The notes under the pieces: model-generated
Databases searched by the model: none
What the model saw: only the letters and a program-made list of their open reading frames with translations
Told to the model about the DNA's origin: nothing
Translations under genes and position numbers: made by a program
Shown here: piece after piece, positions 44,509 to 60,425 of the stretch
How the letters are laid out: every line of letters starts with the position of its first letter
Position numbering within the stretch: position 1 is the first letter of the stretch
Assembly (NCBI GenBank): GCA_020055645.1
Contig: CM034548.1
Location: forward strand, 15,686,001 to 15,750,000
DNA length: 64,000 nucleotides
Source of the DNA: Tomocerus qinae
Lineage: Eukaryota > Arthropoda > Collembola > Entomobryomorpha > Tomoceridae
Direction of reading: 5' to 3'

Positions 44509-44513
44509 AAACA
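44509..44513. repeat. target-site duplication of the BEL/Pao element, left copy (AAACA)
   Basis: AAACA directly precedes the 5' LTR and recurs at 60421-60425 directly after the 3' LTR. Five bp is the usual length for this group. One base of play exists because both LTR copies are preceded by A. Confidence 0.85.
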
Positions 44514-45098
44514 TATTATAATATGTACGTAGTCTTAAAGTATTATATTAATAAGACGTAGTCTGTAAATAGGTATCTAAAAATATATTTATTGCTGACT
44601 CTCAACCGCACATATGCATGTAGTAAATAAAGTTTTGTTTTCCTTATAGCTATACAACAGAATCAGTGCACTATGTATAATGTATTTACGCTATTGTTAA
44701 GTATAAAGTATAAACTGATTTTCCTGGACTAATTTAGGTTAAATTATTTTCCTTAAACAGCCCTAAATCAATGAACTCCTTTTTATGCTTTATTTAGACT
44801 TTTAAGTTTTAGATATTAGATGATAAATAGGTTAGTCACTAACCACTAGTTAAAACTTATTTTATGTAACACTTTTATCCATTTTACTGGAACACACATC
44901 CTGTAACTATAGTATATAAGCCTGTACTTTAATCGAAATAAATATTCTAAGTTTCACTCTTAGTTTCACCCTTCTCTACGAAGTTTTATTTTCATATACA
45001 TACGTGTAAACTAGCACATTATTACTTGCTCATTTAATGGTCAGAATCTTCGGGACATTTTCATTATTCGTATATTGCAAGATTCTGCATACCTATTT
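44514..45098 (+). repeat. 5' LTR of the BEL/Pao element (585 bp)
   Basis: It matches 59285-60420 base for base by eye once the insertion there is removed. The ends are TATTATAATATG and ATACCTATTT, not the usual TG..CA. The boundaries are fixed by the 5-bp duplication, by the primer site 3 bp beyond the right end and by the polypurine tract before the other copy. Confidence 0.93.
44913..44942 (+). promoter_or_regulatory. LTR core promoter and poly(A) signal
   Basis: TATATAAG at 44913-44920 is the best TATA box in the LTR, and AATAAA follows at 44937-44942 (repeated in the 3' LTR at 60235-60242 and 60259-60264). With a TATA-driven start about 25-30 bp downstream, R would begin just after AATAAA, which then serves 3' end formation from the 3' LTR. 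Confidence 0.55.
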
Positions 45099-45101
45099 AT
45101 T

Positions 45102-45119
45102 TGGCTCCCCGTGCTAACC
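45102..45119 (+). other. primer binding site, tRNA-Asp type
   Basis: TGGCTCCCCGT starts 3 bp after the LTR. Its complement ACGGGGAGCCA is the 3' end expected of animal tRNA-Asp with CCA. The match, as I recall the tRNA, covers about 11 bases; beyond that it weakens. Confidence 0.75.
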
Positions 45120-45867
45120 TTTGAACTCCGATTTTGTGAACCTTAAGGCCCACCATTTCCTCAGGCCCTTACAGGACTCTCCGTGACATATCCGTGCATG
45201 AACTTCTCTACGTTCTCCGGATACCGTGAGCGAGACATGTGTTATATACTTATTTTTCAGCCGGCTTCCATATAAGTATTTCTCTCGTGTGTGTGAATGA
45301 CTATTCTGCTAAAATAGTCATTTCGTCTCGCATTTTCCCAGCTGAGCCTAGTAGTGCTCACTCGATACACGACTTTTTTCAGACTGTGTTTCATAGTGGT
45401 GTGTGGCTCGCATAGCCAACTCTATTACATCGTGTCAGGCTTCTGTTCGGTTTACAAACCTCACCGTTGCGGTCAGTGCAGTTGTTTATCTGCCACTCGC
45501 TCATTTTACTACTCGATTGTGTTTACTACTGCTATTATTGTGTCGCCTGACTCGATCCGTGCTCGATTTACATTCCGTCGATTTTCTTACGTTTTGTGCA
45601 GTCCATGTGTTCATTCATCGGACTTTTGTTTCCAACCAGCGACGGTCTCACCTCTACTCACCATCTCTCTCATCGTGGATTTATTCGCACTTGGCTTCCG
45701 AATTACTTTCCGATCCAGTGCCAACAAAAGGTCAGATTTTTTTTCTTCTATGCCCCCACTGTCCCTTTATTTTTTCGGTGGCCAGGGCTTGTCATTTTGA
45801 CAATCATAGCACTTACATCCATATATGTTCTCGTGGCAGTCATAGCACTAGCTATGGTACCTAGCCA
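45120..45867 (+). other. untranslated leader of the retroelement
   Basis: A pyrimidine-rich leader. Overlapping open frames in it (45354-45800, 45403-45864, 45596-45871) lack a domain. At least the longest begins with GTG rather than ATG, so I do not call them genes. Several short upstream ATGs exist. The tract CCCTTTATTTTTTCGGTGGCCAG (about 45763-45785) resembles a 3' splice site shortly before the gag ATG. Confidence 0.5.
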
Positions 45868-48800
45868 ATGAGTGACCCTCAGGATGAACAATCCCCCACA
45901 TCTAGTAGAGCATACACTAGACAGCAAGGGCAGGCCCAACTCCCTGCACACTTTGACCTTACAAAAAGCCCATATACAGAAGCAAGAAATAGAAATCAAC
46001 AAATTGCAAGTAGTACAGCCAGTACTAAAACAAACCTCGACGAAGAATTCATCTCTGACGACGAATTTCTGGCAAAGCTCAGGCGCATCCAACAATCCAT
46101 CCCTGATCCAAAAAGGGAACTCAGCAACCAGCTCGCAAATATCTCAAGTCGACGAGGTACTACCCCCCACGCTAGATCCCAAAGCGTTCGTGGTACCACC
46201 CCCGAAGTATCAACTAGCCAGTCTCATTCGTTATCACCGCACAGAGCGGTGCCCGCATTGCAAGGTCAAGATACACCGACCCTGCCAAGGGATACGCGCC
46301 AATCACTCTTCTCACGTGTTATCAAACCACTTTTTGGCAACAACCAAGAAAATCCAGAAGGAAGACAAACCGGTGACCGAACCCCAAACCGGTCTCCAAA
46401 CCGAAACCCCGTAGGCAATCGTCAAGGACCTTACACTCCTCCACCAAGAATGGATGGCCAGGTTCCTCCAAACGGACAACAAAATCTACCCCCAGGGGAT
46501 CAGAACGGAGGAGGTGACGATGGAGACCAAAATGGAAATAACAGAAGACGTCACAATGATAGATCTAGGGAAAGTACCCCCCAGTCCCGAGACGACGATG
46601 AAGGCCAAAGAGCCCGTAGACGGATAATATTCGCTAACATGGAAGATCATCTAGATAATCACGCGGCCATAGCTGCCGCTTTAGACAAAATAGACCAGGC
46701 TATTGAAGATCATGAAGAAAACCGAAGACAATTGATCGAAATAGACATAGAAATTTATCTAGAGGAACTAAAACAATTGAAAACAGATCTGGACAAACAA
46801 CAGAAAAATTGTTTTAAAATATATGATAACGAACTTCACGAAGGAGAAGAAACTACTCCCCAAGAAAGAGCAGTGGCATATTACAATTCATTAGAATCCA
46901 ATTATCATAGAATATTACGAAAGTTAATGGCATTAGAAAAGGTTATCTGTCCTAGTAAAACCGTTGCCAACTCGAGTTCAGTGAACAAACTGAAAATTCC
47001 TAAATTTAGTCTGCCAAGGTTTTCAGGCAAACCAGAGCATTGGTCAGCATTCAAGGATAACTTTGAGACAGTAGTTATCAAAGAACCAGCATATTCCCCA
47101 GCCCAAAAACTTAGGCTACTTAACGATGCATTAAAGGACGGTAGTAGAAAACACATTAACAGCGATTTAAAAGTTAATGACCAAAATTGGGAGACTGCAT
47201 GGAAGAGGCTAACCTCACGTTATGACACACCAAGAGAAATGGCTCATGCAGCCCTGAAACCCATTCTAGATCTACCTACACTCATGATTCAAACGGAAGA
47301 TGGCATTAATAGACTCGTTGACATTGCACGAGCATCAGAGGCCCATCTTAAGGAGATTAATACGCAAGTTCCATTATATCATGTATTCTACATACATTTT
47401 ATATTGGGAAGATTGGACAGTAAAACCGCAAAAGCATTCAATGATTCCATTAAAAATGACGATATTCCCACGTTTGAACAATGCTTAGAATTCTTGTCCA
47501 AAAAAGCGAAGGCCATAGGCCTCAACACCCAGATACGTAATACCTGTAAACAATCAGGGGATAAACCGAAGGAATTACGTTTTCATCATAAGTCCAGAAA
47601 AGGACCACGGATTATGGTAGCGACTCAGGATACTGAAGGAGAAACTACCGATAACTACTCTGATAGCGAAACCTCAGGCACCAGCGCTACTAGCATATGT
47701 AGTGTTGCCAGCGGCACTAAGAAAAAGAGACAATCAAGACGGAAGAGTGAAAGAAAAAAATCCGTCAACTTCGCTGGAAAACCTCCGCCACGATTCCATA
47801 AGAAGGGTCAGAACAGAAGTCCCTCGCCAGGGCATAGTAAATTTGGACCTTCCAGATTTAAAAATGATAATCAAAGCCAATTTCCTTGCAAGGACAGTCA
47901 CGATAACAGCTGTTCCTTATGTCATAAGAAAGACCACAGGGTCACAGCCTGTCCCAAGTATCAAGCCATGTCTGTGAAGGAAAGAATCAATTGGATCAAG
48001 ACCAATCGCAAATGCTTTAACTGTGTAGGAAATCATCGGGTTAGCAATTGCACTAGCAAGTTTTCATGTATGACTTGTAGAAAACGGCATCATACGTCGA
48101 CACATCTAGAACCCGAGTCACCCAGATCGAGTAGCCCACATAGAAAAGGGCAACAGATGCCAGTCCTTAATCACTCAAGGATCCTTCTTGATGAACAAGA
48201 AGAAGAAATAGGATTGCTACCCACAGCAATTGTTAATCTCCAAAATAACGGCAAAACTCGCCGAGTCCGCTGTCTCCTCGATTGTGGAGCACAGAATTCC
48301 TTTATAACAGAAAAAATGGCAAAACAACTTCAACTAGAAGGATTTGGTGAAACCAAAAGATTTACAGTCGCCGGAGGGAAAACGATTCCCTCACTCGGAA
48401 AAACGATGTTTTGGATTCAATCTATAGTCCATCCAACCAATTCATACCGAGTTATCGCTTATATTTTGCCAGATATCACTTCACCCTTGCCCAATCAATC
48501 ATTCGACAAGAAAGAATTACTTCATTTAGAAGGCTTACCACTGGCTGACCCTACTTTTAACGAAACTCGACCAATAGAAGTCTTGCTTGGATCAGCAATC
48601 TATGATAAAGTCATGGAAGCTAAGAAAATCACTGGATTGAGCGGGACACCTAGTGCTTACCGAACTACGCTTGGATACGTAGTTCTAGGGGAAACAAAAG
48701 ATGAAACCACTAAACTTTGTTGCACCGCAATAAAAAGGAAGGATATAGTTCCCATTCCGATGGCTCCATTCAACATGGAAACGTTTTGGCAAATTGAGCA

Positions 48801-51800
48801 ATTACCCACAAAACTTCCTATGACTGAAACAGAAAAGTTTTGCGAAGAGCATTATGTCAAAAATACGGTTCGGCTACCTAATGGCTCATACCAGATAAGA
48901 TGGCCATTTATTGAAAGTACCGAAAAATTAGGAAATTCCGAGGCAGCAGCCATACGAAGATGGCTGAGCACAGAATCCAGATTGAAAAAATTTCCAAATT
49001 TACAACAAGAATACAATGATCAACTTGAAGAATACCTAAAGGCAGGTCAAATGGAACCAGTTCATTTGGCAGACGAGAATCCATTTGGAAGACCTCACCA
49101 TTACTACATCCCGCACCATGCAGTCTTCAAACCGGATTCTACTACGACCAAGGTTCGTATTGTATTCGATGCATCTGCAAAAACGTCATCTGGAGTTTCT
49201 TTGAACGACATATTAGCCCCTGGACCTACTATCCAACCGGATTTATTTGACCAACTTCTTTACTTCCGGTTAAGACCAATTGCTGTCGTGGCTGACATAG
49301 CAAAAATGTACCGACAAATAAGAGTACATCCGGAAGAACAAGATTTCGCCAGGATAATTTGGCGAAAACATCCAAGCGAACAATTACAACACTTCAAAAT
49401 GAACACAATACCCTTTGGATTTTCACCTGCACCATTTTTAGCCTGCAGAACATTACGACAGCTCGCCGAAGATGAAGGCTCCAAGTTTCCGTTAGCTGCA
49501 CAAGCAGTAAGAGCGCACTTTTATGTTGATGATTTTATGAGTTCTTATTGTGATTTGGCCACCGCCAATCAAGCCAAGGACGAATTGATACAAATGATGG
49601 CCACTGCAAACTTCGAGCTACGCAAATGGAGCAGTAATTCGAAACAACTTCTCAAGACATTACCACTCCACTTAAGAGAATCGTCTGAAAACCCAATGAA
49701 AATTGATAACACAGCCACCGTGAAAACATTAGGTTTAAAATGGCTGCCCTCGACCGATCGATTTATGTTTACGGTTAATTTTGATCCATCCAAGGCCCAC
49801 ACCAAGAGAACGATACTCTCTGATATTTCTAAGGTTTTCGACCCTCTAGGCCTGTTAGCTCCTGTCATAACCAAGGCGAAGGTTTTGATGCAAACCATTT
49901 GGACTCAGAATATTGAATGGGACCAAGCTATCCCAGAACCAATCCTAACAAATTGGCTACATTACGCCAAAAATCTACAACAATTAGAAAAGATTCGTAT
50001 TCCCAGATGTTTACAGTATGACAAATCTTTCATCTGGGAACTCCACGGATTCTGCGATGCCAGCCAATTGGCATATGGAGCTGTTATCTATTTACGAGGA
50101 CGAAAGGGCGATAAGGTGGACATAAATCTAGTTGCAGCCAAAACCAGAGTTGCTCCTATTAAAACAGTGACGATTCCACGATTAGAATTACAAGGAGCTG
50201 TTCTACTAGCAAATTTGGCTGATCATATCAAAAAACTATGGAACATACAATATGCCGCAATCCATTTATGGTGTGACAGTACGATTGTACTTAATTGGAT
50301 CCATTCAGAACCTACACGATGGAAAATTTACGTTGCTAACCGCATCACCCAAATCCATGAACTAACGACTAAGGATCAATGGCACCATATATCATCAGAA
50401 GATAATCCAAGTGACTGCGCGTCCAGAGGACTGGATCCCGAAGAGCTGCGAAACCACCCGCTATGGTGGCATGGACCCAAATGGCTTTCAGAACCAAAAT
50501 ATCCAGTACCTACATTCAATCCAACAACTTGTAGCAACGAATTTGATAAGATTGAAGAAAAGAAAAATCTAATATGTGCCATATCGCCTCGAGATGAAAA
50601 TATTGTACTACAAGGTCTATCCAAATTCTCATCATGGAAAAAGGCCATTCGAGTCATGGCCTACATTCTCCGCTTTACACATTGTACATATGTTGGAAAA
50701 TCAGTGATTATCGGGCCTTTAGAATTGGATTCAGCTGAAAGGAACATAGCTGGACTAATCCAAGCAAGCATATACCCTGACCTAGGTATCAAGGTTCATA
50801 ATCAGAAACATCACCCATTCAAAAATTTGGACCTGTTTAAAGATGAAGAAGGCATTTTTCGAATAGGGGGAAGGCTAGAAAATGCCCCCTCCCGTTTGCA
50901 ACAAAAACACCCGATATTACTACCAGGAAACCATCCATTGGCAAGAGCAATGATTCTTCACACTCACGTCATTCTAGCTCATGCAGGAAAACAAACAATA
51001 AACGGACATATTCGTCAACGTTACTGGATCCCGAATGCAACAAAAACTATCAAGAGTGTCATTAACAAATGTTTAACATGTTTCCGATACAAGGCCAGAC
51101 CAGAAACCCAATTAATGGGACAGCTTCCTCCTGCCAGATTCAGTGATATTCGCCCATTTCTACACTGTGGTGTGGATTTGGCCGGACCATTCCTACTTCG
51201 GAACCTCACAGGCCGTGGAGGCCCCTTCAAGGTGTGGCTAACTCTCTTTATCTGTATGAGCTCGAGGGCCATACATTTGGAAATCGTATCTTCAATGTCA
51301 ATTGATGGGTTTCTATTGGCATTTCGACGTTTCATTTCTCGAAGAGGACGGCCCTCTCATATGTATTCAGATAACGGTACCAACTTTGTTGGAGCAAGTA
51401 ATCGAATGGACGACTTTCACGAACAAATGAAAACAGCCATACAAACAAGGAACAAGATACTACCAGATATTGAATTCGAGAAAATTATATGGCAATTCAA
51501 TCCACCAGCAGCACCCCATAAAGGCGGGTCCTGGGAGGCTGCAGTAAAATTGGTCAAAAATCATCTGAAAAAATTGATCGATAATGACATTTACAAATAC
51601 ACCTGGGAAGAATTTGAGACTATAACCACATTTGTTGAAGCAGTAGTCAATTCTCGCCCATTAACAGCAATATCTGAAGATCCAAGGGATTTAGACGTAT
51701 TGACACCAGGACATTTTCTTATTGGCCACACTCTCACCATGAACCCAGAACATGACGTCACTCATTTAAAGGAGAATCGTTTGGATAAATATCAACGAAT

Positions 51801-54291
51801 TATGCGTCGACATCAAGAAATCTGGAAAAGATGGGAAAAGGAATACATATTATCCTTACAGAAAAGGCAGAAATGGATGTCAAAACAAGTAAATTTAAAA
51901 ACGGGAGATTTGGTCTTAGTAATGGAAGACAACCAACCGCCACTTCAGTGGCGCACTGGCAGAATAAAAGCAGTACATCCTGCAAAGGACGGTCTTATTC
52001 GAGTTACTACGGTAGAAACTCAAAGCACGTATGACGAAAAAAGAGGTAAATTTCAGAAAACGGTGAAGGAATTTCTAAGACCAATTTCCAAATTAGCAAA
52101 ACTGCCGGATTCAGACGAAGATGATTTCGATTGTCCAATACTACCACATGAATTGGAAAACAAACCAACAGCCACAGGCTCAAGGATTACACATATAGCC
52201 CATGAAAAAGGATACTACGAAATGCCAAAACTATATCTAAATCAATGCCTGAAATCATCAGCATGGCCATGGATTTATACCGCTGTGGTCATGGTCTTAG
52301 CAAACATTCAACAAACGTCGGCCACAGAAATTGACCAGAATAAGAAGATCAGATCATGGTGGACTACCACCATGGTATTCTATTGTGTGATTATATTCGC
52401 CATTCTCGGATTTATTGGCAATACGATAACCTTAATAGCAATCAGCCGAACTCCACAACTAAAAAAGAACAAATTCAATTGGCTAATAATGAGTCTATGC
52501 TGCTCAGACTTGCTATTTAGCAGTGTGACACTTCCAATGACAGCAGTACGATACTACTACGATGCATGGATGTTAGGACCCTTCATGTGCCAAGTTTATG
52601 CATGGTTTCTATACGGAAACTTGTGTTGCTCACTGGCCAATATCCTCACAATATCATTCAATAGATATGTGTGTATAGTTCACCACTGGGACTATCCTAA
52701 TTTATTCTCCAAATATCGTATGTGGTTCATGATCATCGTTACCTGGGTTTTAAGTTTTTTAATGGTCACGCCTCCAGCAATAGGAATTTGGGGGAAATTA
52801 GGCCCCAAGCCAAACAACCCAGCTTCATGCTCTATAATTCCAGATAAATACGGTCAATCCCCTAAGAAGATGATTTGGATAGTAGGAATTTGCTTTCCTA
52901 CTGCAATCATTATATATTATTACGCACGAATTTTCTTCTACACACGGAAAATAAGAAGACAAGTCGGCACTTTAACTCAAAGATCCATTACTGGATACGA
53001 AGAAAGAAACAAGGAGGAAAAACAACTATTTCGAATGATTTGTTTCGTATTCCTTGGATTTTTATTCAACTTTCAGCCTGTCATCATCCTAAAATTGTAC
53101 GACCCGAAGAGAGAAAAAGTATCTAAATTAGTACATATCGGAAGTGCACTACTTGCATGGTCCTCCTCATGGACAAATGTACTGATCTATGCGATTTCAA
53201 ACCCGCAGTACCGCAGTGCATATAAGAAATTACTATTACCAAGACGCCGTCTCACTGCAACCCACTCCTCAACAACAATTATAACTACAACTATAATATT
53301 ACTACTGATTGGATCAGGAATGGCAACGTTTCATCAAACTCAGCCAAACCTCTCGAAACTAGCCTCTCCATGTGAATATGAGTGGCCACCACATCATGAA
53401 ATTCCAGAATGTACAAGCACTATCTCTTGGCTGCATACAAAAATAAACGGAACTCTTTGCTTTCGAAATATCACATGCGATCCCGGAAAAATGATTGCAC
53501 CTGAGGGCACTTCATGCTTGAATGTATCCAACGACACACAATGCAAGGAATTTAAGGAGACTACATTAGATGACTTGGAATGCCAGTCACATTTTACAGC
53601 TCCAGATCCGGCGATATTCTATCAAGACGATGTCAGATCACCACTATGTGCCGTCGGTGACAATGTGCTAAAACATTGTCAACATTTTACCGAGCAGTAT
53701 GAAAATGTTCCCGTGATCATTCAAGACGGGCAATTACATCCGCTTTTAAAATTAAATCTACAACAAGACGCCCGAAAGGAATCTTTTGAGTCATACACTT
53801 GCAAGGGTTCGTGTACGAAAGAAAAATGTACCTCCAAACAATGCAAGGGTGACAGATTATTCTGCGAACAGTTCGGCTGCACTAACGAAATTCGAGCTAA
53901 TTGCGAATGTCGTTACAATTCTTCAACGCTGCTTCACCGCATGATATCCCCCTTGGGCGATTTTTACCCCCAATGTTGGGGTACAATGAGGCTGTTTACC
54001 CGAAAGGAAGATTTAAGTCATTCTCAAACAGTATATCCATGCGCAACGTGTAGCATTGAGTGTACTAAAACCGGTCTTAAAATTTCAACCCCCGGAATAG
54101 TAGCCAAATACATAAAAGCTCAGAAAAACCCTAATTTTGTGTCCGTAGTCCCAACCTCATTTGAGACAGCCTTACAGCTAACCAAAAGTATGTCAAGCTC
54201 CCCAGGTAAATTACAAATAGAAATTTGGGTACTTGATTACGATTCCCCGACAATTAGATCAATAACATGCCCTCGAATTCCCTTTTTGTGA
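45868..54291 (+). CDS. Gag-Pol-GPCR-envelope polyprotein of BEL/Pao element (2807 aa)
   Basis: One uninterrupted frame. Gag: Arg/Gln/Pro-rich start, DUF1759-type domain from about residue 374 (KLKIPKFSLPRFSGKPEHW) and zinc knuckles at 682 (CX2CX4HX4C) and 716 (CX2CX3HX4C). Protease: DCGAQNSF with catalytic Asp 805. Reverse transcriptase: VRIVFDASAK, then YVDD at 1219-1222. RNase H: FCDASQLAYGA, Asp 1397. Integrase: HX4H (1700, 1705) and CX2C (1735, 1738), then Asp 1770, Asp 1835, Glu 1890 (PHKGGSWEAA). A DUF5641-type domain follows at about 1980-2075. This order is that of Bel/Pao. The frame then goes on through a hydrophobic signal-like stretch (about 2135-2151), a class A GPCR (about 2164-2460), another hydrophobic stretch (about 2468-2490) and a Cys-rich envelope subunit, ending at TGA 54289-54291 after a T5 run. 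All catalytic residues are present. Confidence 0.95.
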   Translation: MSDPQDEQSPTSSRAYTRQQGQAQLPAHFDLTKSPYTEARNRNQQIASSTASTKTNLDEEFISDDEFLAKLRRIQQSIPDPKRELSNQLANISSRRGTTPHARSQSVRGTTPEVSTSQSHSLSPHRAVPALQGQDTPTLPRDTRQSLFSRVIKPLFGNNQENPEGRQTGDRTPNRSPNRNPVGNRQGPYTPPPRMDGQVPPNGQQNLPPGDQNGGGDDGDQNGNNRRRHNDRSRESTPQSRDDDEGQRARRRIIFANMEDHLDNHAAIAAALDKIDQAIEDHEENRRQLIEIDIEIYLEELKQLKTDLDKQQKNCFKIYDNELHEGEETTPQERAVAYYNSLESNYHRILRKLMALEKVICPSKTVANSSSVNKLKIPKFSLPRFSGKPEHWSAFKDNFETVVIKEPAYSPAQKLRLLNDALKDGSRKHINSDLKVNDQNWETAWKRLTSRYDTPREMAHAALKPILDLPTLMIQTEDGINRLVDIARASEAHLKEINTQVPLYHVFYIHFILGRLDSKTAKAFNDSIKNDDIPTFEQCLEFLSKKAKAIGLNTQIRNTCKQSGDKPKELRFHHKSRKGPRIMVATQDTEGETTDNYSDSETSGTSATSICSVASGTKKKRQSRRKSERKKSVNFAGKPPPRFHKKGQNRSPSPGHSKFGPSRFKNDNQSQFPCKDSHDNSCSLCHKKDHRVTACPKYQAMSVKERINWIKTNRKCFNCVGNHRVSNCTSKFSCMTCRKRHHTSTHLEPESPRSSSPHRKGQQMPVLNHSRILLDEQEEEIGLLPTAIVNLQNNGKTRRVRCLLDCGAQNSFITEKMAKQLQLEGFGETKRFTVAGGKTIPSLGKTMFWIQSIVHPTNSYRVIAYILPDITSPLPNQSFDKKELLHLEGLPLADPTFNETRPIEVLLGSAIYDKVMEAKKITGLSGTPSAYRTTLGYVVLGETKDETTKLCCTAIKRKDIVPIPMAPFNMETFWQIEQLPTKLPMTETEKFCEEHYVKNTVRLPNGSYQIRWPFIESTEKLGNSEAAAIRRWLSTESRLKKFPNLQQEYNDQLEEYLKAGQMEPVHLADENPFGRPHHYYIPHHAVFKPDSTTTKVRIVFDASAKTSSGVSLNDILAPGPTIQPDLFDQLLYFRLRPIAVVADIAKMYRQIRVHPEEQDFARIIWRKHPSEQLQHFKMNTIPFGFSPAPFLACRTLRQLAEDEGSKFPLAAQAVRAHFYVDDFMSSYCDLATANQAKDELIQMMATANFELRKWSSNSKQLLKTLPLHLRESSENPMKIDNTATVKTLGLKWLPSTDRFMFTVNFDPSKAHTKRTILSDISKVFDPLGLLAPVITKAKVLMQTIWTQNIEWDQAIPEPILTNWLHYAKNLQQLEKIRIPRCLQYDKSFIWELHGFCDASQLAYGAVIYLRGRKGDKVDINLVAAKTRVAPIKTVTIPRLELQGAVLLANLADHIKKLWNIQYAAIHLWCDSTIVLNWIHSEPTRWKIYVANRITQIHELTTKDQWHHISSEDNPSDCASRGLDPEELRNHPLWWHGPKWLSEPKYPVPTFNPTTCSNEFDKIEEKKNLICAISPRDENIVLQGLSKFSSWKKAIRVMAYILRFTHCTYVGKSVIIGPLELDSAERNIAGLIQASIYPDLGIKVHNQKHHPFKNLDLFKDEEGIFRIGGRLENAPSRLQQKHPILLPGNHPLARAMILHTHVILAHAGKQTINGHIRQRYWIPNATKTIKSVINKCLTCFRYKARPETQLMGQLPPARFSDIRPFLHCGVDLAGPFLLRNLTGRGGPFKVWLTLFICMSSRAIHLEIVSSMSIDGFLLAFRRFISRRGRPSHMYSDNGTNFVGASNRMDDFHEQMKTAIQTRNKILPDIEFEKIIWQFNPPAAPHKGGSWEAAVKLVKNHLKKLIDNDIYKYTWEEFETITTFVEAVVNSRPLTAISEDPRDLDVLTPGHFLIGHTLTMNPEHDVTHLKENRLDKYQRIMRRHQEIWKRWEKEYILSLQKRQKWMSKQVNLKTGDLVLVMEDNQPPLQWRTGRIKAVHPAKDGLIRVTTVETQSTYDEKRGKFQKTVKEFLRPISKLAKLPDSDEDDFDCPILPHELENKPTATGSRITHIAHEKGYYEMPKLYLNQCLKSSAWPWIYTAVVMVLANIQQTSATEIDQNKKIRSWWTTTMVFYCVIIFAILGFIGNTITLIAISRTPQLKKNKFNWLIMSLCCSDLLFSSVTLPMTAVRYYYDAWMLGPFMCQVYAWFLYGNLCCSLANILTISFNRYVCIVHHWDYPNLFSKYRMWFMIIVTWVLSFLMVTPPAIGIWGKLGPKPNNPASCSIIPDKYGQSPKKMIWIVGICFPTAIIIYYYARIFFYTRKIRRQVGTLTQRSITGYEERNKEEKQLFRMICFVFLGFLFNFQPVIILKLYDPKREKVSKLVHIGSALLAWSSSWTNVLIYAISNPQYRSAYKKLLLPRRRLTATHSSTTIITTTIILLLIGSGMATFHQTQPNLSKLASPCEYEWPPHHEIPECTSTISWLHTKINGTLCFRNITCDPGKMIAPEGTSCLNVSNDTQCKEFKETTLDDLECQSHFTAPDPAIFYQDDVRSPLCAVGDNVLKHCQHFTEQYENVPVIIQDGQLHPLLKLNLQQDARKESFESYTCKGSCTKEKCTSKQCKGDRLFCEQFGCTNEIRANCECRYNSSTLLHRMISPLGDFYPQCWGTMRLFTRKEDLSHSQTVYPCATCSIECTKTGLKISTPGIVAKYIKAQKNPNFVSVVPTSFETALQLTKSMSSSPGKLQIEIWVLDYDSPTIRSITCPRIPFL
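52270..53250 (+). other. embedded seven-helix receptor domain, Tre1/Moody-like (residues ~2135-2460 of the polyprotein)
   Basis: A full class A GPCR without introns. TM1 has GN (Asn 2185) and TM2 SLCCSDLLFSSVTLPMTA with Asp 2.50. TM3 begins with the disulfide Cys (MCQVYAWFLYGN) and ends with NRY (2265-2267) in place of DRY. TM4 has Trp and PPAIGIWG, ECL2 the partner Cys (ASCSI), TM5 follows SPKKM with Pro and Tyr, and TM6 has NFQP instead of CWLP. TM7 reads LLAWSSSWTNVLIYAISN, then helix 8. Words such as LPMTAVRYYYDAW, NRYVCI, SPKK and ALLAW match the insect Tre1/Moody receptors, relatives of melatonin-type receptors, in which NRY is normal. It has no amine-binding Asp in TM3, so it was not copied from the neighbouring aminergic gene. 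A signal-like segment (AWPWIYTAVVMVLANIQQTSA) precedes it and may be processed off after integrase. Confidence 0.9.
53251..54291 (+). other. envelope N-terminal (Gn-like) subunit, first part
   Basis: After the receptor's helix 8 a hydrophobic segment (TTTIILLLIGSGMATF) probably acts as signal or anchor. A Cys-rich ectodomain with several N-glycosylation sites (NGT, NIT, NVS, NDT, NSS) follows to the stop at 54291. The matching membrane anchor is missing in this frame but present just downstream in the next frame. Position and layout correspond to the first glycoprotein of a phlebovirus-type precursor; sequence similarity is too low for me to prove this half. Confidence 0.65.
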
Positions 54292-56275
54292 ATTAATTGA
54301 TTGTCATTTTTGCGCAGACCGATGGAGAAATTTCTCCTGCTACACTTACATCCAATACGTGATTATAGCAATAGCCACACTAACTCTTTCCTCAATTATT
54401 TTTACGGTAATATATATCTCGAAAATTATTTGCACCCTGTTACGGTGTATTTCGTGGCCTTTACGAATTGTTATACAATTCATGAGGGCGAGGAAAACCC
54501 GCCCGAAACCAATTACTAGAGAATCAGATGAAGATATTGGGACCCCGCTTATAGAAGTAGCCCCACATATATCCACACCTATAGTCGAAGCACGAAACGA
54601 AACTCGTAGCGCACGTCGAAACTCAACTCGGGTACGCCGACGAGACTATTTGCCCACAAGACTTTTGACTATATTTTCCCTATGGGTATCCATTTTCTTA
54701 TGTTATGGGTGCTCAGATTTTGCATCCATTTCCGCCCAATCCAAAGAATGTCACTATGCCTCAGATACTACAACAACATGCACCGTACGCATTAATACTA
54801 GATTATCTCTTGCGGCACTTGATCAAAAAACATGCTTTCGTATTCAAGATGCCAAAAATCACGTTTTAGGTTCAATCGTTATTGAAACTAAATCGGTTGC
54901 ATTAACGTGCATGAAGGAATTACTCTATTATATTCCCAAGGCAGTACCACATTGCACTAGTGCGATTAAATGTTACAATATATTTGGTTCTGCATTATGT
55001 CATGGAACCCATTGCGAAAATTTCGGCATTAATGACACAATCAAAGAATTTCGGTCTACAGAAACCAACTTGGGTTGGAATTATTGCCGTAATTTCCGTC
55101 ACAATTGGTGTTTCCTCCCAATTCCATCAGATTGCAATTTTTATCGTGTGGCATTAGTAAATCCCACCAACCAAGCATATAAGGTTTGGAAATGCAATGA
55201 ATGGAGGAATTCGGTAAAACTAAGCATTACACACCACTTAGGAAATGAAACAACTACTAATTTAACCACTATTCATGCAGGAATTCCAGTAAAAATAGGA
55301 AAAATGGAATTCACCCTTATATCAATCACTGAACCATACACCCCAGTTCTAAATCAATGCCTATTGTCTAGAAATAATCAATACAGCTTGTCTGCTTGTT
55401 TAAATCGCGGACAAACTGAAATAGGTAGTATAGGCGAGATTGCATGCCCACAAGAGCAAGACGCTAAAACTGTGAGCCACAACTGCTTTGCTAATCTTGG
55501 TCTGGTACGAACCATACCTACCCAGGACGGGGTCCGCTGTGTAGCAGACCTTGTAGACCCCGAAAAGGTTTTAGCTGAAAATCGACTACCATTAAAATTG
55601 GAGAATGGTATGTTAATAGCTGACTCAGTCAATATCAGTTTTCTCTCAGCCTCGACTTCAGCTCTAGAAATTCAAATGACTACCAACGATCTCCAAATAA
55701 CTAAAGAAATCCAAGATATCTCTTGCTCTGTGGAGATAATATCCTTATCAGGTTGCTTTAATTGTTTGGAATCAGCTGAGCTAATTTTGGTTGGTAAGGT
55801 TGACATCGGATCTGAAACCGGTACGCTAGAATGTCCAGACGCTGGATTTTTTAGCCCCGTACCATTGACGGATCAATTTACAAAACACCAAATTATAATG
55901 AAATTATCTCAACCAAATGTGCATATGAATTGTACGTTCAAATGCGCAAAACATGTTATTCCATTGACCATCACAGGTCATTTACATTATTCAGAAGATG
56001 TGGATGTCAGAGATGAAATGACAGACACATCGTTCACATTATTCCAAGATACCAATAAAACAGAGTCAACAACCTCTGGTTTTAGTTGGGATAATTTAGG
56101 ATTAAACTGGGCCAATATTAAGTCAGTTCTCCAACTGCCATTTAGTATTGGTTCCTTTTTATCCTCGATATTTTCCTCATGGATTTTAAAAATAATAGTA
56201 TTCATCCTTATTATTGCCTGTTTAGCTGGGATATTGTACCTATGCTCTCAACGGCTCATAAAAAAGATGATATAA
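54290..56275 (+). CDS. envelope second part: TM, cytoplasmic segment, signal and class II fusion (Gc-like) subunit; frame-broken from the polyprotein
   Basis: Open in the +1 frame relative to the polyprotein from before the stop at 54289, 662 codons to TAA 56273-56275; no ATG before 54482. It holds a TM segment (about 54359-54430), a basic and acidic cytoplasmic part, and a second hydrophobic segment (LLTIFSLWVSIFLCYGC, about 54661-54720) like the internal signal of a two-subunit precursor. Next comes a Cys-rich ectodomain with the spacing of phlebovirus Gc, including a Trp/Cys-rich candidate fusion loop at about 55072-55120, and a C-terminal anchor at about 56170-56248. This is the class II fusogen reported for BEL/Pao envelopes. 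The frame change coincides with a T5 run, so a one-base indel in this copy, an assembly error or a programmed +1 shift are all possible. As read here the envelope is broken. Confidence 0.8.
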   Translation, partial: ELIDCHFCADRWRNFSCYTYIQYVIIAIATLTLSSIIFTVIYISKIICTLLRCISWPLRIVIQFMRARKTRPKPITRESDEDIGTPLIEVAPHISTPIVEARNETRSARRNSTRVRRRDYLPTRLLTIFSLWVSIFLCYGCSDFASISAQSKECHYASDTTTTCTVRINTRLSLAALDQKTCFRIQDAKNHVLGSIVIETKSVALTCMKELLYYIPKAVPHCTSAIKCYNIFGSALCHGTHCENFGINDTIKEFRSTETNLGWNYCRNFRHNWCFLPIPSDCNFYRVALVNPTNQAYKVWKCNEWRNSVKLSITHHLGNETTTNLTTIHAGIPVKIGKMEFTLISITEPYTPVLNQCLLSRNNQYSLSACLNRGQTEIGSIGEIACPQEQDAKTVSHNCFANLGLVRTIPTQDGVRCVADLVDPEKVLAENRLPLKLENGMLIADSVNISFLSASTSALEIQMTTNDLQITKEIQDISCSVEIISLSGCFNCLESAELILVGKVDIGSETGTLECPDAGFFSPVPLTDQFTKHQIIMKLSQPNVHMNCTFKCAKHVIPLTITGHLHYSEDVDVRDEMTDTSFTLFQDTNKTESTTSGFSWDNLGLNWANIKSVLQLPFSIGSFLSSIFSSWILKIIVFILIIACLAGILYLCSQRLIKKMI

Positions 56276-56490
56276 CGCAATTAAATATTACTTAGTTCTT
56301 AAAATTAACAATAGAATAAGATGTCCATTTTTACACAATTGTCTCAAATAAATGTAAAATCTTCGTTCCATAGAAATAAGCTATAGAAACATGGACCATA
56401 TGTTATCCAAATAGTACATAAGAATCTGAATTTTGTCTTAGAATTAAGTCCGTAATAAATTAATAAGTAGTTCCATCCGGTCTTTGCAGT
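56276..56490 (+). other. spacer with a 3' splice site before ORF3
   Basis: 215 bp, AT-rich, no ORF. It ends in TCCGGTCTTTGCAG (AG at 56488-56489), a good acceptor only one base before the ORF3 ATG. This suggests ORF3 is made from a spliced subgenomic mRNA. Confidence 0.55.
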
Positions 56491-57507
56491 ATGGATACCT
56501 CTCAACACTTTTTCAACGGAACTATGGAAGAACTCGAATTTATTTTAAACACTCCCATGGTACCTTCACCTGATATCGCTCCTTTACCATGGTCCCCATT
56601 TTCTTTACCCCCTTTAACAGTAAATAACGAAATTGAAAACACAACTTCTACTCTTGAAGCAGAAAAACCATTGGATTTAAGTCACCAGACCCCTACAGTT
56701 CCAGAATCAAGTAAAGTGCTAGTTGTGAACGCATCCACAAGTGAAATCAGCAACCCCCCAACAACCACGATAGTTCCTACCGGTCCTACAAAAGAAATCA
56801 TAAATCTTCTTACTACTCCTCCATTGATAGACATAAGCTCGATAATTGACGAATTTATAACCTCCGAGTCCACCCAACAACTAAATTCACAGTCCTTCAA
56901 CGAAGCGATACTCCAAGATGCAGAACTCAACCAAATAGATGATTACAACATCGTGATTAATTCTAAAGTGCAAGAAAATTTGGAATTACGGCGCAAAATC
57001 ATTAATCTGGAAAATACGATTTCTTCTAATTCTCAATTCGCAAGCATGCGAGCTACCCGTATACGATTTCTAGAACGCTATGTATTAGAAATACATAATG
57101 AGAAAACCAGAATCCAACAAATACTAAATACATTACTGCACCCTGGACCTTCCGCATCGCATCCATTGACAAACACTAGCTGCCCATTATCTGGCAGAGA
57201 ACGTATGATTCACGAAGACATGAAATATTGGTTTACTGTAGCTCAAACACTGAAATTAGATGTGGAAAAGGCGATAGAAGAAAAGGAAAAAGCTGAATGG
57301 GACTGGAGTAGAGAAAACCAACATCACATAGAAGCATTGGCGACTATACAGTCCTTGCAAAAACAGATAAAGAGCATGCGGTTACGTATTTTTCCAGCTC
57401 ATAAGAAAATAAACTCTAAAACGAGTAAAACTGTTCCTACTAAGCGGACAGGAGTCCCTACAAAGGGAACCACAAGAAAACAAACAATATCCTCAACCGC
57501 AAACTGA
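56491..57507 (+). CDS. accessory ORF3: 338-aa coiled-coil protein with PLDLS motif, function unknown
   Basis: I recognise no family. The first half (1-150) is acidic and rich in Pro, Ser and Thr. It carries PLDLS at residues 60-64 (EKPLDLSHQ), the consensus by which cellular and viral regulators bind the corepressor CtBP. Residues about 155-210 and 245-300 are rich in Glu, Lys, Gln and Leu with heptad-like spacing and probably form coiled coils. The last 30 residues are basic (PTKRTGVPTKGTTRKQ) and may be a nuclear signal or bind nucleic acid. A splice acceptor sits just before the ATG. Together this suggests a nuclear regulatory protein, for instance of LTR transcription, but that is inference. 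The frame is intact and lies between envelope and polypurine tract, where complex retroviruses keep accessory genes. Confidence 0.8.
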   Translation: MDTSQHFFNGTMEELEFILNTPMVPSPDIAPLPWSPFSLPPLTVNNEIENTTSTLEAEKPLDLSHQTPTVPESSKVLVVNASTSEISNPPTTTIVPTGPTKEIINLLTTPPLIDISSIIDEFITSESTQQLNSQSFNEAILQDAELNQIDDYNIVINSKVQENLELRRKIINLENTISSNSQFASMRATRIRFLERYVLEIHNEKTRIQQILNTLLHPGPSASHPLTNTSCPLSGRERMIHEDMKYWFTVAQTLKLDVEKAIEEKEKAEWDWSRENQHHIEALATIQSLQKQIKSMRLRIFPAHKKINSKTSKTVPTKRTGVPTKGTTRKQTISSTAN

Positions 57508-57733
57508 TAGTTCCTATATATATAATTACTTCCTGTTAAACACATCCACCACTAAATGAACTGCTTATATTGCACTAAGGAAATATTCTGTCACAAGGCT
57601 GTATTCATACTAATAATTCTTAATTTACCTTTTATTTTATAACCAGTGAAGAAATTCCTCAATAGTTCATTAACATCACGTTGGTTATCCAGACTTGTTC
57701 TTCTTACCGATTTGCTCTCTCTTCAATCTTAAA
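57508..57733 (+). other. spacer before ORF4 with candidate splice acceptors
   Basis: 226 bp, no ORF. TTGGTTATCCAG (AG 57691-57692) followed by a pyrimidine-rich tract lies about 40 bp before the ORF4 ATG and may be a 3' splice site. Confidence 0.4.
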
Positions 57734-59116
57734 ATGGATCTAATTTTTTCGAGCTACGATAGTGACAGTGATAGCAATAGTTCCCTGTCTGCTGAAATTG
57801 GAAACTGTATACCTACAAATGCTGACAATTCCAACAAAAAATTCGTTGAATTGCTTCAAAAATATAACTATGTGAAACAGTGGAATAAACAGTGTCGAGC
57901 CAGTTATATTGAAGTAAGTGGAAAATACAATGTTGCATTAAAGATACAAAGTGAAGTGGAACCAATAGTGACACAATTATGTGATTTGGTTGAATCTACC
58001 AACCAGCGGTTGGAAAGCACAAATGAAAAATTAGTGTTAACAACCGCCGAACTCATGAAAGTTACTTGTGCCCATGAAAACAATAAGGCAACAATAAAAC
58101 TGTGGCAAGGCCGATACAGTAACGAGCAACAAAGACTTCAGGAGAAAACAACTGAATATCTCATCCTAGAACAAAACCATGACGTATGGATTAATGAACT
58201 GAAGGATCTCCAGGAAAAACATCAAACACTCAAAGGTGTGAACGAGATTCTCCAAGCAGATATCGTATACAAGGATGAAAGATATGCCACCTTGCAACGT
58301 GCCATTACCGATCTTAACAGCCGTTATGATGAGGTCAATGATAACCATCATGATCTTAATCTACAGTTAGAAGAAGCAGTGGCTCAGAACGCAGTACTCC
58401 AATCTGAAATTGACAAAATGAATAAAGAAAAACTCCAAAATCAAATTGAAATTCAATCATCACGAAACAACCGAAAAAAGTTGTGTGCTAAGTTTAAAAA
58501 AGTTAAAAATGACTATTCAAACCTACAGAAACTATCAAAAGGATATGAACAGGCCGGTGCTCTCTTCAGAGCTGAGAATAAACAACTCCAACAACAGCTA
58601 CGGGACAATAAACCTGAGGGCCAATTTCTTCTTCGGGAACAATTAGAAGCCAAAGATGAAGAAATTGCTCATCTCTCCCAATCTCTCAGGAAAAAGCAGA
58701 CTGAGATTTGGGAACATCAAGATGACTTCGCTCGTCAAGTTTTAGACAAAAAGAAGGTCCTACAAGCGAAGGCTATTGTGCAAGCCAAATTAGATGATAC
58801 AAAAATGGTCCTGGAACATACACAGGAAGGATTGGCAATACAAAATGAAGCCATCTGTAATCTCCAAACCGAGGTAACACTCACGCGGCAAAGATGTGTG
58901 CGACAATACATCCGCCGTGCGAAAATGCTGACCACCATCAGAAGTGACAATCTTCAAACCCGTGCACTTCACGCCGCAAGAATCACATTGCGGAACGCCC
59001 AACGAGCCCGAAGATATATTGGCATTCATAAGGAATATCGTCACGGTATGTCAGTTTTCATACAAAATTTAAATCAACGTCGTCTTCTACGCTCTCGACG
59101 AGACTTTGTTAATTAG
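57734..59116 (+). CDS. accessory ORF4: 460-aa coiled-coil protein, function unknown
   Basis: The first ATG of the frame is at 57734; the frame is open 13 codons further upstream without an ATG. The N-terminus is a short hydrophobic start followed by an acidic Ser/Asp run (SSYDSDSDSNSSLS), a good casein kinase 2-type target. From about residue 60 to 400 the protein is almost all Glu, Gln, Lys, Asn and Leu with heptad spacing, a long coiled coil. The last 60 residues are strongly basic (IRRAKM, NQRRLLRSRRDF), suggesting nucleic-acid or membrane-surface binding. No signal peptide, no TM. Coiled-coil composition would make weak hits to tropomyosin- or SMC-like proteins meaningless. The frame is intact, so it is probably under selection in the element. 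Role could be structural or regulatory; not known. Confidence 0.75.
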   Translation: MDLIFSSYDSDSDSNSSLSAEIGNCIPTNADNSNKKFVELLQKYNYVKQWNKQCRASYIEVSGKYNVALKIQSEVEPIVTQLCDLVESTNQRLESTNEKLVLTTAELMKVTCAHENNKATIKLWQGRYSNEQQRLQEKTTEYLILEQNHDVWINELKDLQEKHQTLKGVNEILQADIVYKDERYATLQRAITDLNSRYDEVNDNHHDLNLQLEEAVAQNAVLQSEIDKMNKEKLQNQIEIQSSRNNRKKLCAKFKKVKNDYSNLQKLSKGYEQAGALFRAENKQLQQQLRDNKPEGQFLLREQLEAKDEEIAHLSQSLRKKQTEIWEHQDDFARQVLDKKKVLQAKAIVQAKLDDTKMVLEHTQEGLAIQNEAICNLQTEVTLTRQRCVRQYIRRAKMLTTIRSDNLQTRALHAARITLRNAQRARRYIGIHKEYRHGMSVFIQNLNQRRLLRSRRDFVN

Positions 59117-59270
59117 CATTTATTATCATTGTGGCTTTCCTTTCTTCCGTTTCTTCAGTATTTTATCACATATCTACTTATTCTTAGACTCAAACTAATA
59201 TCGTTCTTTAAGTATCATTGCTTATCATATCTTGTATTTATCAATTTTTTGTCTTCCCTTACGGTAACCC
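59117..59270 (+). other. 3' non-coding segment before polypurine tract
   Basis: A T-rich stretch between the ORF4 stop and the polypurine tract; nothing recognisable. Confidence 0.4.
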
Positions 59271-59284
59271 AAAGGCCGGGAGAA
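59271..59284 (+). other. polypurine tract (plus-strand primer)
   Basis: AAAGGCCGGGAGAA directly before the 3' LTR; purine-rich apart from two C. Position and composition fit the priming site of plus-strand synthesis. Confidence 0.75.
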
Positions 59285-60420
59285 TATTATAATATGTACG
59301 TAGTCTTAAAGTATTATATTAATAAGACGTAGTCTGTAAATAGGTATCTAAAAATATATTTATTGCTGACTCTCAACCGCACATATGCATGTAGTAAATA
59401 AAGTTTTGTTTTCCTTATAGCTATACAACAGAATCAGTGCACTATGTATAATGTATTTACGCTATTGTTAAGTATAAAGTATAAACTGATTTTCCTGGAC
59501 TAATTTAGGTTAAATTATTTTCCTTAAACAGCCCTAAATCAATGAACTCCTTTTTATGCTTTATTTAGACTTTTAAGTTTTAGATATTAGATGATAAATA
59601 GGCAGTGTACCAAATACCATTTACCACTTACCAGTGGTAAGTGGTTTTTAATGGTATTAAACGTTAAATACCACTACCTAGAAAGTAGTGGTAAGTGGTA
59701 TAAATGGTAAAAATGGTAAAAAATAGTTTCATTTAAATTTCGTGTTTGAATTTTGAATAAAATTCGGTGCCAAAGTATGAAATAGCTTAGCAGATGGTCA
59801 TTGTTGTCACAAATTGATAAGTGTTAATCAATCAGAGTAGGATTCAACCAAAGTTGCTGTAGTTGAGTATCAGGTTTGTTCTTCAGGATGTTTTTTCTTC
59901 AGGATGTTTGAAAAATGAAAAACTTTTTTCATTTGTGGATCTAAATTGGACGATTTAGATCCACAGCCAATAGAAAATAAAGTTTTAAAAACTTATATTT
60001 TAGGAAGTCTAGTGTATCTGTACTCAGCTGTCTAATCAATCGCTAAAATTTACCATTTTTACCATTAAATGCATTTTTACCATTAAGTGCATTTCTACCA
60101 CTGTGATGGTAAAAAAGACTAAAAAGTGGTAAATTTTGTACACTGTAAATAGGTTAGTCACTAACCACTAGTTAAAACTTATTTTATGTAACACTTTTAT
60201 CCATTTTACTGGAACACACATCCTGTAACTATAGTATATAAGCCTGTACTTTAATCGAAATAAATATTCTAAGTTTCACTCTTAGTTTCACCCTTCTCTA
60301 CGAAGTTTTATTTTCATATACATACGTGTAAACTAGCACATTATTACTTGCTCATTTAATGGTCAGAATCTTCGGGACATTTTCATTATTCGTATATTGC
60401 AAGATTCTGCATACCTATTT
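59285..60420 (+). repeat. 3' LTR of the BEL/Pao element, split by a nested hAT element
   Basis: 585 bp of LTR in two parts, 59285-59602 and 60154-60420, separated by the insertion 59603-60145 and one copy of its 8-bp duplication. No mismatch to the 5' LTR was seen by eye. Confidence 0.93.
59603..60145. mobile_element. nested non-autonomous hAT-like element, 543 bp
   Basis: Termini CAGTGTAC and GTACACTG; flanking 8-bp duplication TAAATAGG (59595-59602, 60146-60153) that occurs once in the intact 5' LTR, which proves the insertion. Both subterminal regions are crowded with GGTAA/TTACC and ACCACT/AGTGGT words in both orientations (e.g. TTACCACTTACCAGTGGTAA), likely transposase-binding repeats. 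No ORF. Confidence 0.92.
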
Positions 60421-60425
60421 AAACA
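60421..60425. repeat. target-site duplication of the BEL/Pao element, right copy (AAACA)
   Basis: Identical to 44509-44513. Confidence 0.85.

What the first reader, a model, noticed from the sequence alone, without database searches (positions are those of the whole stretch)
52270..53250. A complete GPCR fused into the polyprotein of a BEL/Pao retroelement
Seen: the gag-pol frame runs without a stop from integrase into a seven-helix class A receptor with the conserved Asn of TM1, Asp of TM2, paired loop cysteines, Trp of TM4 and Pro of TM5/TM6, then into an envelope. The receptor words match the Tre1/Moody family of arthropods. Known: large DNA viruses such as herpes- and poxviruses carry captured GPCRs; I know of no LTR retroelement that does. 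Inference: the element captured a host receptor through reverse transcription of a spliced mRNA, as it has no introns. Retained key residues suggest the receptor is used.
Basis: partly seen in the sequence, partly recalled or inferred. Interest (0 to 1): 0.97.

Follow-up and report, generated by a model that had tools for sequence, protein, structure and literature searches.

The report
Retrovirus-like element carries cell-guidance receptor
An arthropod genome holds a retrovirus-like element that carries, inside its own protein chain and just ahead of its envelope, a cell-surface receptor related to ones that guide migrating cells, and selection has preserved that receptor in three branches of the element.

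Summary
Confirmed and extended. Window 44513-60420 is a BEL/Pao-type element with identical LTRs. Its frame 45868-54291 runs gag-protease-RT-integrase-class A GPCR-Gn; Gc (phlebovirus G2-like) lies in another frame in this copy. The GPCR is no one-off: in this 334-Mb arthropod genome 23 of 45 Gc loci have it just upstream, in three lineages (about 97-98%, 70-78% and 42% identity). Two sister lineages lack it. It is under purifying selection (17 usable pairwise fits, omega 0.007-0.24), keeps N1.50, D2.50, NRY, W4.50 and the loop cysteines in 7 of 7 aligned copies, but has NV(L/M)IY for NPxxY. Signal-peptidase-like sites stand on both sides in each lineage, implying that the ER cuts it free. Element receptors form one clade inside a Tre1/Moody/GPR84 group that also holds two intron-bearing host genes. 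Best reading: one old capture of a Tre1/Moody-type receptor, kept as a working envelope-module protein; its role (steering infected cells or particles across epithelia to the germ line) is inferred. The papers and collections searched showed no retroelement GPCR; most arthropod genomes and non-open literature were out of reach.

The parts
44509..44512 (.). target-site duplication AAAC, left copy (right copy 60421-60424)
   Evidence: AAAC on both sides if the LTR ends at 45098/60420
44513..45098 (+). 5' LTR, 586 bp
   Evidence: identical to the 3' LTR except for a nested insert there
45102..45116 (+). TGG-starting primer-binding-site-like stretch (tRNA not identified)
   Evidence: sequence; by eye
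45868..54291 (+). open frame gag-pol-GPCR-Gn, 2807 codons
47020..47457 (+). DUF1759 (gag side)
   Evidence: 4e-21
48241..48399 (+). retroviral-type aspartyl protease match
   Evidence: 5e-7
49522..49533 (+). RT active-site box YVDD
49801..50280 (+). Pao retrotransposon peptidase A17 family region
   Evidence: 9.1e-56
50944..51099 (+). integrase zinc-binding domain H2C2
   Evidence: 1.7e-10; HHCC at 50959
51787..52101 (+). DUF5641, end of the integrase part
   Evidence: 2.1e-28
52261..52323 (+). signal-peptide-like segment before the receptor, (-3,-1)-type site before TEID
   Evidence: judged by eye
52270..53250 (+). class A GPCR, Tre1/Moody/GPR84-type clade (7tm_1 match 52417-53190)
53272..53325 (+). 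signal-peptide-like segment before Gn, (-3,-1)-type site before TFH
   Evidence: judged by eye
53410..54114 (+). Gn, Phlebovirus_G1 match
   Evidence: 1.5e-15
54359..56275 (+). Gc, Phlebovirus_G2 fusion protein (match 54710-55678), in another frame than Gn in this copy
   Evidence: 6.6e-64
56491..57507 (+). ORF3, 338 aa, no confident family; relatives in lineage B
57695..59116 (+). ORF4, 473 aa, coiled-coil-like by eye, no confident family
59284..60420 (+). 3' LTR, with a 543-bp insert at 59603-60145

Best explanation
An envelope-bearing BEL/Pao element captured, probably once and long ago, a cellular class A receptor of the Tre1/Moody/GPR84 group and has kept it between integrase and the phlebovirus-type Gn-Gc envelope. 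SHOWN: in-frame position, recurrence in three lineages, one clade of element receptors, strong purifying selection. READ BY EYE: signal-peptidase-like sites on both sides in each lineage. INFERRED: the segment before the receptor sends the chain into the ER; signal peptidase cuts before the receptor and before Gn, freeing a seven-span receptor with its tail in the cytoplasm, made together with Gn and Gc. MORE WEAKLY INFERRED (about 0.35): it signals in infected cells as Tre1 does in fly germ cells and blood cells, helping infected cells or particles cross epithelia and reach the germ line. Loss of the Pro of NPxxY with NRY kept suggests altered coupling. The confidence given is for capture plus retained function, not for that role.
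For: Pfam and PDB matches. Order integrase-GPCR-Gn in 16 of the 20 regions, over lineages A, B and C; 23 of 45 Gc loci with the receptor upstream. Selection on 8 of the copies with open receptors: 17 of 28 pairs give usable fits, omega 0.007-0.241, LRT against omega = 1 from 15.6 to 329.7; e.g. 0.087 (W-L002), 0.033 (L010-L011), 0.019 (W-L012). W against L012: receptor dN 0.201, integrase C-part 0.225, RT region 0.212, Gn 0.347, Gc 0.328. Border segments 'W.WI...' to SA/NA and ...MA/SA. One receptor clade, 99/97 and 96/95. A-rich third positions as in the element (receptor 0.349; other parts 0.34-0.397; host L021 0.222). Model folds as a class A receptor (Foldseek 8.6e-10). Tre1 roles: PMC3848830 and PMC6122984, passages.
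Against: No expression, protein or signalling data. NPxxY is lost in 15 of 15 aligned copies. Many copies are broken: L015 and L016 lose the frame just after the receptor, L013 is open but has a scrambled stretch in it, others carry stops. Sister lineages exist without the receptor, so it is dispensable for the kind. Integrase, Gn and Gc trees do not show the receptor-bearing lineages as one clade, nor reject it (AU p 0.118, 0.416, 0.231), so loss or exchange is open. W against L010 the receptor (dN 0.194) is less conserved than integrase (0.117) and RT (0.135); close pairs give W-L004 0.42 and L014-L015 1.13 on 12 changes each. Receptor GC3 (0.416) lies between other element parts (0.326-0.372) and host L021 (0.492). 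Cleavage sites were judged by eye.
Confidence: 0.82

Rival explanations
1. The receptor works as a structural or targeting part of the particle or envelope complex (an analogue in position of the NSm region of phlebovirus precursors), and its signalling is irrelevant.
For: It sits where phlebovirus precursors carry NSm (recalled) and is bounded by signal-peptidase-like sites; NPxxY is lost; lineage D carries a short one-span membrane peptide in the same slot.
Against: Asn of TM1, Asp of TM2, NRY, Trp of TM4 and both loop cysteines are invariant in 7 of 7 aligned copies, more than a membrane filler needs; human melatonin receptors show NAxxY in the alignment, so the motif change does not show loss of signalling.
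Confidence: 0.25
2. The receptor is a decoy or sink that binds a host ligand and blunts the host Tre1/Moody-type pathway, without signalling itself.
For: The stretch between TM4 and TM5 (WG.LG..SC.I...G.SPKK-like) is shared with host L021 and the beetle receptor; intracellular NPxxY is altered in every copy aligned.
Against: The intracellular NRY and the QYR.A of the tail are also invariant; no ligand is established in the passages I read.
Confidence: 0.2
3. Passive passenger: the receptor was carried along by a lucky in-frame capture and is neutral.
For: Captured host domains are reported in LTR elements, e.g. orchid Ty3/Gypsy (PMC9289625, listing only); two close pairs give omega 0.42 and 1.13.
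Against: omega = 1 is rejected in all 28 pairs fitted (p 8e-5 or smaller); three lineages with saturated synonymous sites; fixed position.
Confidence: 0.03
4. Assembly artefact, or a chance insertion next to a host receptor gene.
For: A host octopamine/alpha-1 adrenergic-like receptor exon lies at 37089-38111, 14 kb before the element's receptor.
Against: That exon is of another receptor group; the junction recurs at separate loci on C1, C2, C3, C4, C7 and C21.
Confidence: 0.01

Closest known systems
Atlas virus and other nematode belpaoviruses with phlebovirus-like Env (PMC9094657, passages seen)
   Same: BEL/Pao pol, one gag-pol-env chain, Gn-Gc envelope related to phleboviruses, 100% identical LTRs
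   Different: No receptor in the passages; 'GPCR' occurs 0 times in the main text. Atlas is 9204 nt with a 2828-residue chain and the nematode RT box YVDN; here 15.9 kb, YVDD, a GPCR between integrase and Gn and two further ORFs
GPCRs of large DNA viruses (US28/US27, ORF74, poxvirus and giant-virus GPCRs)
   Same: Captured class A receptors; best fold matches among predicted viral structures
   Different: Matches are 8-20% identical by Foldseek. 17 of the 20 with E at most 1e-3 bear a virus name, each a herpes-, pox- or giant virus (groups recalled); 3 are unnamed. Here the receptor is one part of a reverse-transcribing element's polyprotein
Drosophila Tre1 and Moody, human GPR84 (cellular)
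   Same: NRY motif (Tre1: PMC3848830, passages); tree clade with GPR84 and host L021, L030; Dendroctonus P0009 38% over 292 positions
   Different: Host L021 has introns and NPFIY, P0009 has NPFIY; element receptors have NV(L/M)IY and NFQP/TFQP in TM6. No Tre1 or Moody sequence was compared directly
Errantiviruses / insect endogenous retroviruses (gypsy type)
   Same: Env-bearing LTR elements of insects
   Different: Another family (Metaviridae, with Belpaoviridae as outgroup); PMC12992720, searched by terms, has 'GPCR' 0 times
LTR elements with captured host domains (orchid Ty3/Gypsy with an RNA demethylase, PMC9289625, listing only)
   Same: A host-type domain added to an LTR element
   Different: An enzyme in a plant element; not a receptor (listing)

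Membership tests
BEL/Pao (Belpaoviridae) | Pao-type pol with peptidase A17 region and DUF5641 integrase end | tested here: met
   9.1e-56 and 2.1e-28
BEL/Pao (Belpaoviridae) | LTRs with short target duplication | tested here: met
   586 bp identical, AAAC duplication; termini are not TG..CA
BEL/Pao (Belpaoviridae) | RT tree placement with known BEL/Pao members | not tested
   no reference RT set was at hand
Belpaoviruses with phlebovirus-like Env | Gn and Gc homologues after integrase | tested here: met
   Phlebovirus_G1 1.5e-15, G2 6.6e-64
Belpaoviruses with phlebovirus-like Env | YVDN RT box of the nematode members | tested here: not met
   YVDD; a trait of nematode members per PMC9094657 passage
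Class A (rhodopsin-like) GPCR | whole 7tm_1 profile, seven helices | tested here: met
   (1-260/260); fold search with a model of mean pLDDT 68.9
Class A (rhodopsin-like) GPCR | Asn TM1, Asp TM2, (D/E/N)RY, Trp TM4, loop cysteines, Pro TM5 and TM6 | tested here: met
   invariant N51, D80, N131-R132-Y133, W159, C107, C187, P210, P270 in 7 of 7 copies; motif names recalled
Class A (rhodopsin-like) GPCR | NPxxY in TM7 | tested here: not met
   NVLIY/NVMIY in 15 of 15 aligned copies; human melatonin receptors also vary it
Tre1/Moody receptors | grouping with Tre1/Moody genes in a tree | tested here: inconclusive
   clade with L021, L030, P0009 and GPR84 95/94; branching inside open. L021 and L030 are called Tre1/Moody-like by recall
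Tre1/Moody receptors | signalling in cell migration | not testable with these tools
   needs bench work

The most novel reading that the evidence does not exclude
First reverse-transcribing element known to encode a GPCR: a Tre1-type guidance receptor used as a tropism module, letting infected cells (blood cells, follicle or gut cells) or particles cross epithelia and home to the germ line, where a heritable retroelement must arrive.
Probability: 0.3. Interest if true: 0.97.

Novelty: new variant of a known kind. Interest (0 to 1): 0.92.

Why it matters
Receptor capture is known from large DNA viruses (recalled; fold matches). A retrovirus-like element that holds a host-type GPCR inside its polyprotein and keeps it under selection across old lineages would widen what such elements can carry. 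It also makes an old question testable: how env-bearing elements reach the germ line. In one genome, sister lineages with and without the receptor can be compared in tissue expression and insertion history.

Tried and rejected
Spliced-RNA origin of copies lacking RT-integrase (L003, L004, L005, L007): all four share one in-frame junction (window 48698|52056) and private substitutions, without GT-AG borders, so it is one deletion-derived subfamily, not a copied env mRNA.

Receptor remnant in lineage D: the short membrane peptide in its slot does not match the receptor's N-terminal part beyond chance (31 of 492 scored shuffles reach its score).

First structure model (6 sequences, pLDDT 48.9) was not used. 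Protein searches: the window receptor gave 5 hits, 23-24% identity; the same part scored within a longer query gave none; IMG/VR gave none; an alignment of 7 copies gave 12 hits, best a beetle cellular receptor.

Host: arthropod by 114 chitin_bind_4 matches, 0 of 14 controls; one weak insect odorant-receptor match; species not identified.

Literature, rows listed of papers found: 4 of 4; 20 of 36; 20 of 950; 6 of 6; 10 of 64; 12 of 567; 8 of 162; 0 found. None of the listed titles or abstract starts tells of a retroelement GPCR; unlisted rows were not seen. Searches were malformed and did not run. The library is open-licence PMC only.
Full report
WHAT IS THERE. Window 44513-60420 is one BEL/Pao-type element. 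Its LTRs are identical over the 586 shared bases, the 3' one holding a 543-bp insert, and AAAC flanks both sides. The open frame 45868-54291, searched in pieces, carries DUF1759, aspartyl protease, Pao peptidase A17, integrase H2C2, DUF5641, then 7tm_1 (1.2e-38, whole profile) and Phlebovirus_G1; Phlebovirus_G2 (6.6e-64) follows in the next open frame. YVDD, HHCC and CCHC motifs are present; Pfam's RVT_1 is only weak (0.035). Two further ORFs before the 3' LTR have no confident family. In this copy the frame is split between Gn and Gc; two lineage B copies have open frames of over 3400 codons.

NOT A ONE-OFF. The receptor finds 71 matches in the 334-Mb genome. Putting aside cellular-looking receptors and second pieces of one locus by eye, I listed 28 element-like loci. 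Three groups stand out: about 97-98% identical (lineage A), 70-78% (B) and 40-43% (C); a few decayed copies lie between (e.g. L027, 51%). Of the 20 regions, 16 show integrase before and Gn after the receptor; L020 shows Gn after it only, L023 is a doubtful remnant, L021 and L022 are cellular-looking. The 8 loci (one is the window's own) have integrase sequence before and Gn after it too. Gc (PF07245) gives 55 matches, merged by eye to 45 loci; 23 of 45 have the receptor within 4 kb upstream on the same strand, 22 do not; 5 of the 28 receptor loci have no listed Gc match. Both lists are lower bounds: L008 has Gc by direct comparison yet is not in the Gc list. Of the 22 without, 8 were looked at and none matched the receptor by tblastn at 1e-3: L036, L039 and L043 run from integrase straight into a signal-peptide-like segment and Gn (lineage E); L037, L040, L041 and L042 have a signal-peptide-like segment and a short one-span peptide in the slot (lineage D; L042 lacks integrase in the stretch fetched); L038 is rearranged. 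The other 14, many of them fragments, were not examined.

SELECTION. Codon fits used 8 copies with open receptors (W, L002, L006, L008, L010, L011, L012, L014; L003-L005, L007, L013, L015 and L016 were left out). Of 28 pairs, 17 give usable omega, 0.007 to 0.241, e.g. 0.087 (W-L002), 0.154 (W-L006), 0.197 (W-L008), 0.033 (L010-L011), 0.019 (W-L012); 11 run to meaningless branch lengths (omega printed 0.000) because synonymous sites are saturated. omega = 1 is rejected in all 28 (LRT 15.6 or more, p 8e-5 or less). Counting gives dN 0.201 for the receptor between W and L012, against 0.225 (integrase C-part), 0.212 (RT region), 0.347 (Gn) and 0.328 (Gc); between W and L010 0.194 against 0.117, 0.135, 0.241 and 0.189. 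Against this, the close pairs W-L004 and L014-L015 give 0.42 and 1.13 on 12 changes each, as could be expected of young, partly dead copies.

RECEPTOR ANATOMY. In 7 of 7 aligned copies the TM1 Asn, TM2 Asp, NRY, TM4 Trp, both cysteines and the Pro of TM5 and TM6 are invariant. In 15 of 15 aligned copies TM7 reads TNV.IY instead of NPxxY; TM6 reads NFQP or TFQP in the 10 of 11 displayed rows where the frame is clean there, L013 being scrambled. Host L021 and beetle P0009 have NPFIY and CFLP. Human melatonin receptors show NAxxY, so such a change is compatible with a working receptor. In Drosophila Tre1 the NRY arginine is needed for germ-cell migration (PMC3848830, passages), while NPIIY serves Rho1-dependent repolarisation and NRY acts with Wunen (LeBlanc and Lehmann 2017 as cited in PMC6122984, passage). 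Tre1 is also used by blood cells leaving vessels, and GPR84 is named there as its mammalian orthologue (same passages).

HOW IT IS PROBABLY MADE. Before the receptor stands a hydrophobic segment (W: WPWIYTAVVMVLANIQQTSA|TE; others end NA|SQ, SA|QE, NA|EP) and before Gn another (LLLIGSGMA|TF; GTGMA|NV; GSAMA|DY; VASA|RY). In each lineage the residues at -3 and -1 are A, G, S or T; in lineage C the second segment is seen in L014 only, since L015 and L016 have lost the frame there. I read these by eye as signal-peptidase sites; no predictor was at hand. They imply that receptor, Gn and Gc enter the ER as one module and are cut apart, the gag-pol part staying in the cytoplasm. No splice evidence was found: the four copies without RT-integrase stem from one deletion.

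ORIGIN. In a tree of 21 rows the element receptors form one clade (99/97), in an unresolved group (94/91) with host L021 and L030 and human GPR84, melatonin receptor outside. With beetle P0009 added and fewer rows (14) the element clade has 96/95 and the wider clade 95/94, branching inside unresolved. L021 is 35.7% identical to W over 266 positions and has an intron just after INR of NRY; P0009's gene model lacks the NR there. The names Tre1/Moody for L021 and L030 are recalled. Element receptors have no introns. Their third positions are A-rich like the rest of the element, while GC3 is between element and host gene (window copy only). One capture, before the split of lineages A/B and C, is the simplest reading; whether lineage D lost the receptor or never had it is open (integrase, Gn and Gc trees: AU p 0.118, 0.416, 0.231 for the receptor-bearing rows as one clade).

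FOLD. A model from 11 sequences (mean pLDDT 68.9, pTM 0.65) matches class A receptors in the PDB (best 8.6e-10; GPR84 at rank 22, melatonin receptor at 32). Of 20 predicted viral structures with E at most 1e-3, 17 are named, from herpes-, pox- and giant viruses, 3 are unnamed.

FUNCTION. Shown: a real receptor, a fixed place, selection. Inferred: made with the envelope and released by signal peptidase. Guessed: it lends Tre1-like behaviour to infected cells or particles. Rivals are a particle-structural role and a ligand sink; neutrality and artefact are nearly excluded.

NOVELTY. The kind (belpaovirus with phlebovirus-like Env) is known from nematodes (PMC9094657, passages; the word GPCR does not occur). 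The rows listed by the literature searches show no retroelement GPCR; long lists were seen only in part, and subscription papers, Repbase and most arthropod genomes were not covered. I therefore file it as a new variant of a known kind, and would call it the first retroelement GPCR only with that reservation.

Noticed in passing
L003, L004, L005, L007 (junction = window 48698|52056): Four copies share an in-frame loss of RT and most of integrase but keep protease, receptor and Gn; a non-autonomous subfamily that kept the receptor-envelope module.
   Followed up: partly
L037, L040, L041, L042: Lineage D has a short signal-peptide plus one-span membrane peptide where the receptor sits in A-C; origin unknown.
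   Followed up: partly
window 59603-60145: 543-bp insert inside the 3' LTR flanked by an 8-bp duplication, looks like a nested DNA transposon.
   Followed up: no
window 56491-59116: Two extra ORFs after Gc without known family; ORF3 has relatives in lineage B (28-60% over matched pieces); none was hit in lineage C regions, where little sequence after Gc was fetched.
   Followed up: partly
G000:C3:9167500-9193000 and C1:10308406: Two near-identical copies about 15 kb apart, one sharing its receptor break pattern with a copy on C1; suggests tandem or segmental duplication.
   Followed up: no
window 37089-38111 (-): Host octopamine/alpha-1 adrenergic-like receptor exon about 6.4 kb before the element; a different receptor group from the element's GPCR.
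   Followed up: yes
window 20046-21375 (-): DEAD-box helicase gene in two open pieces.
   Followed up: no
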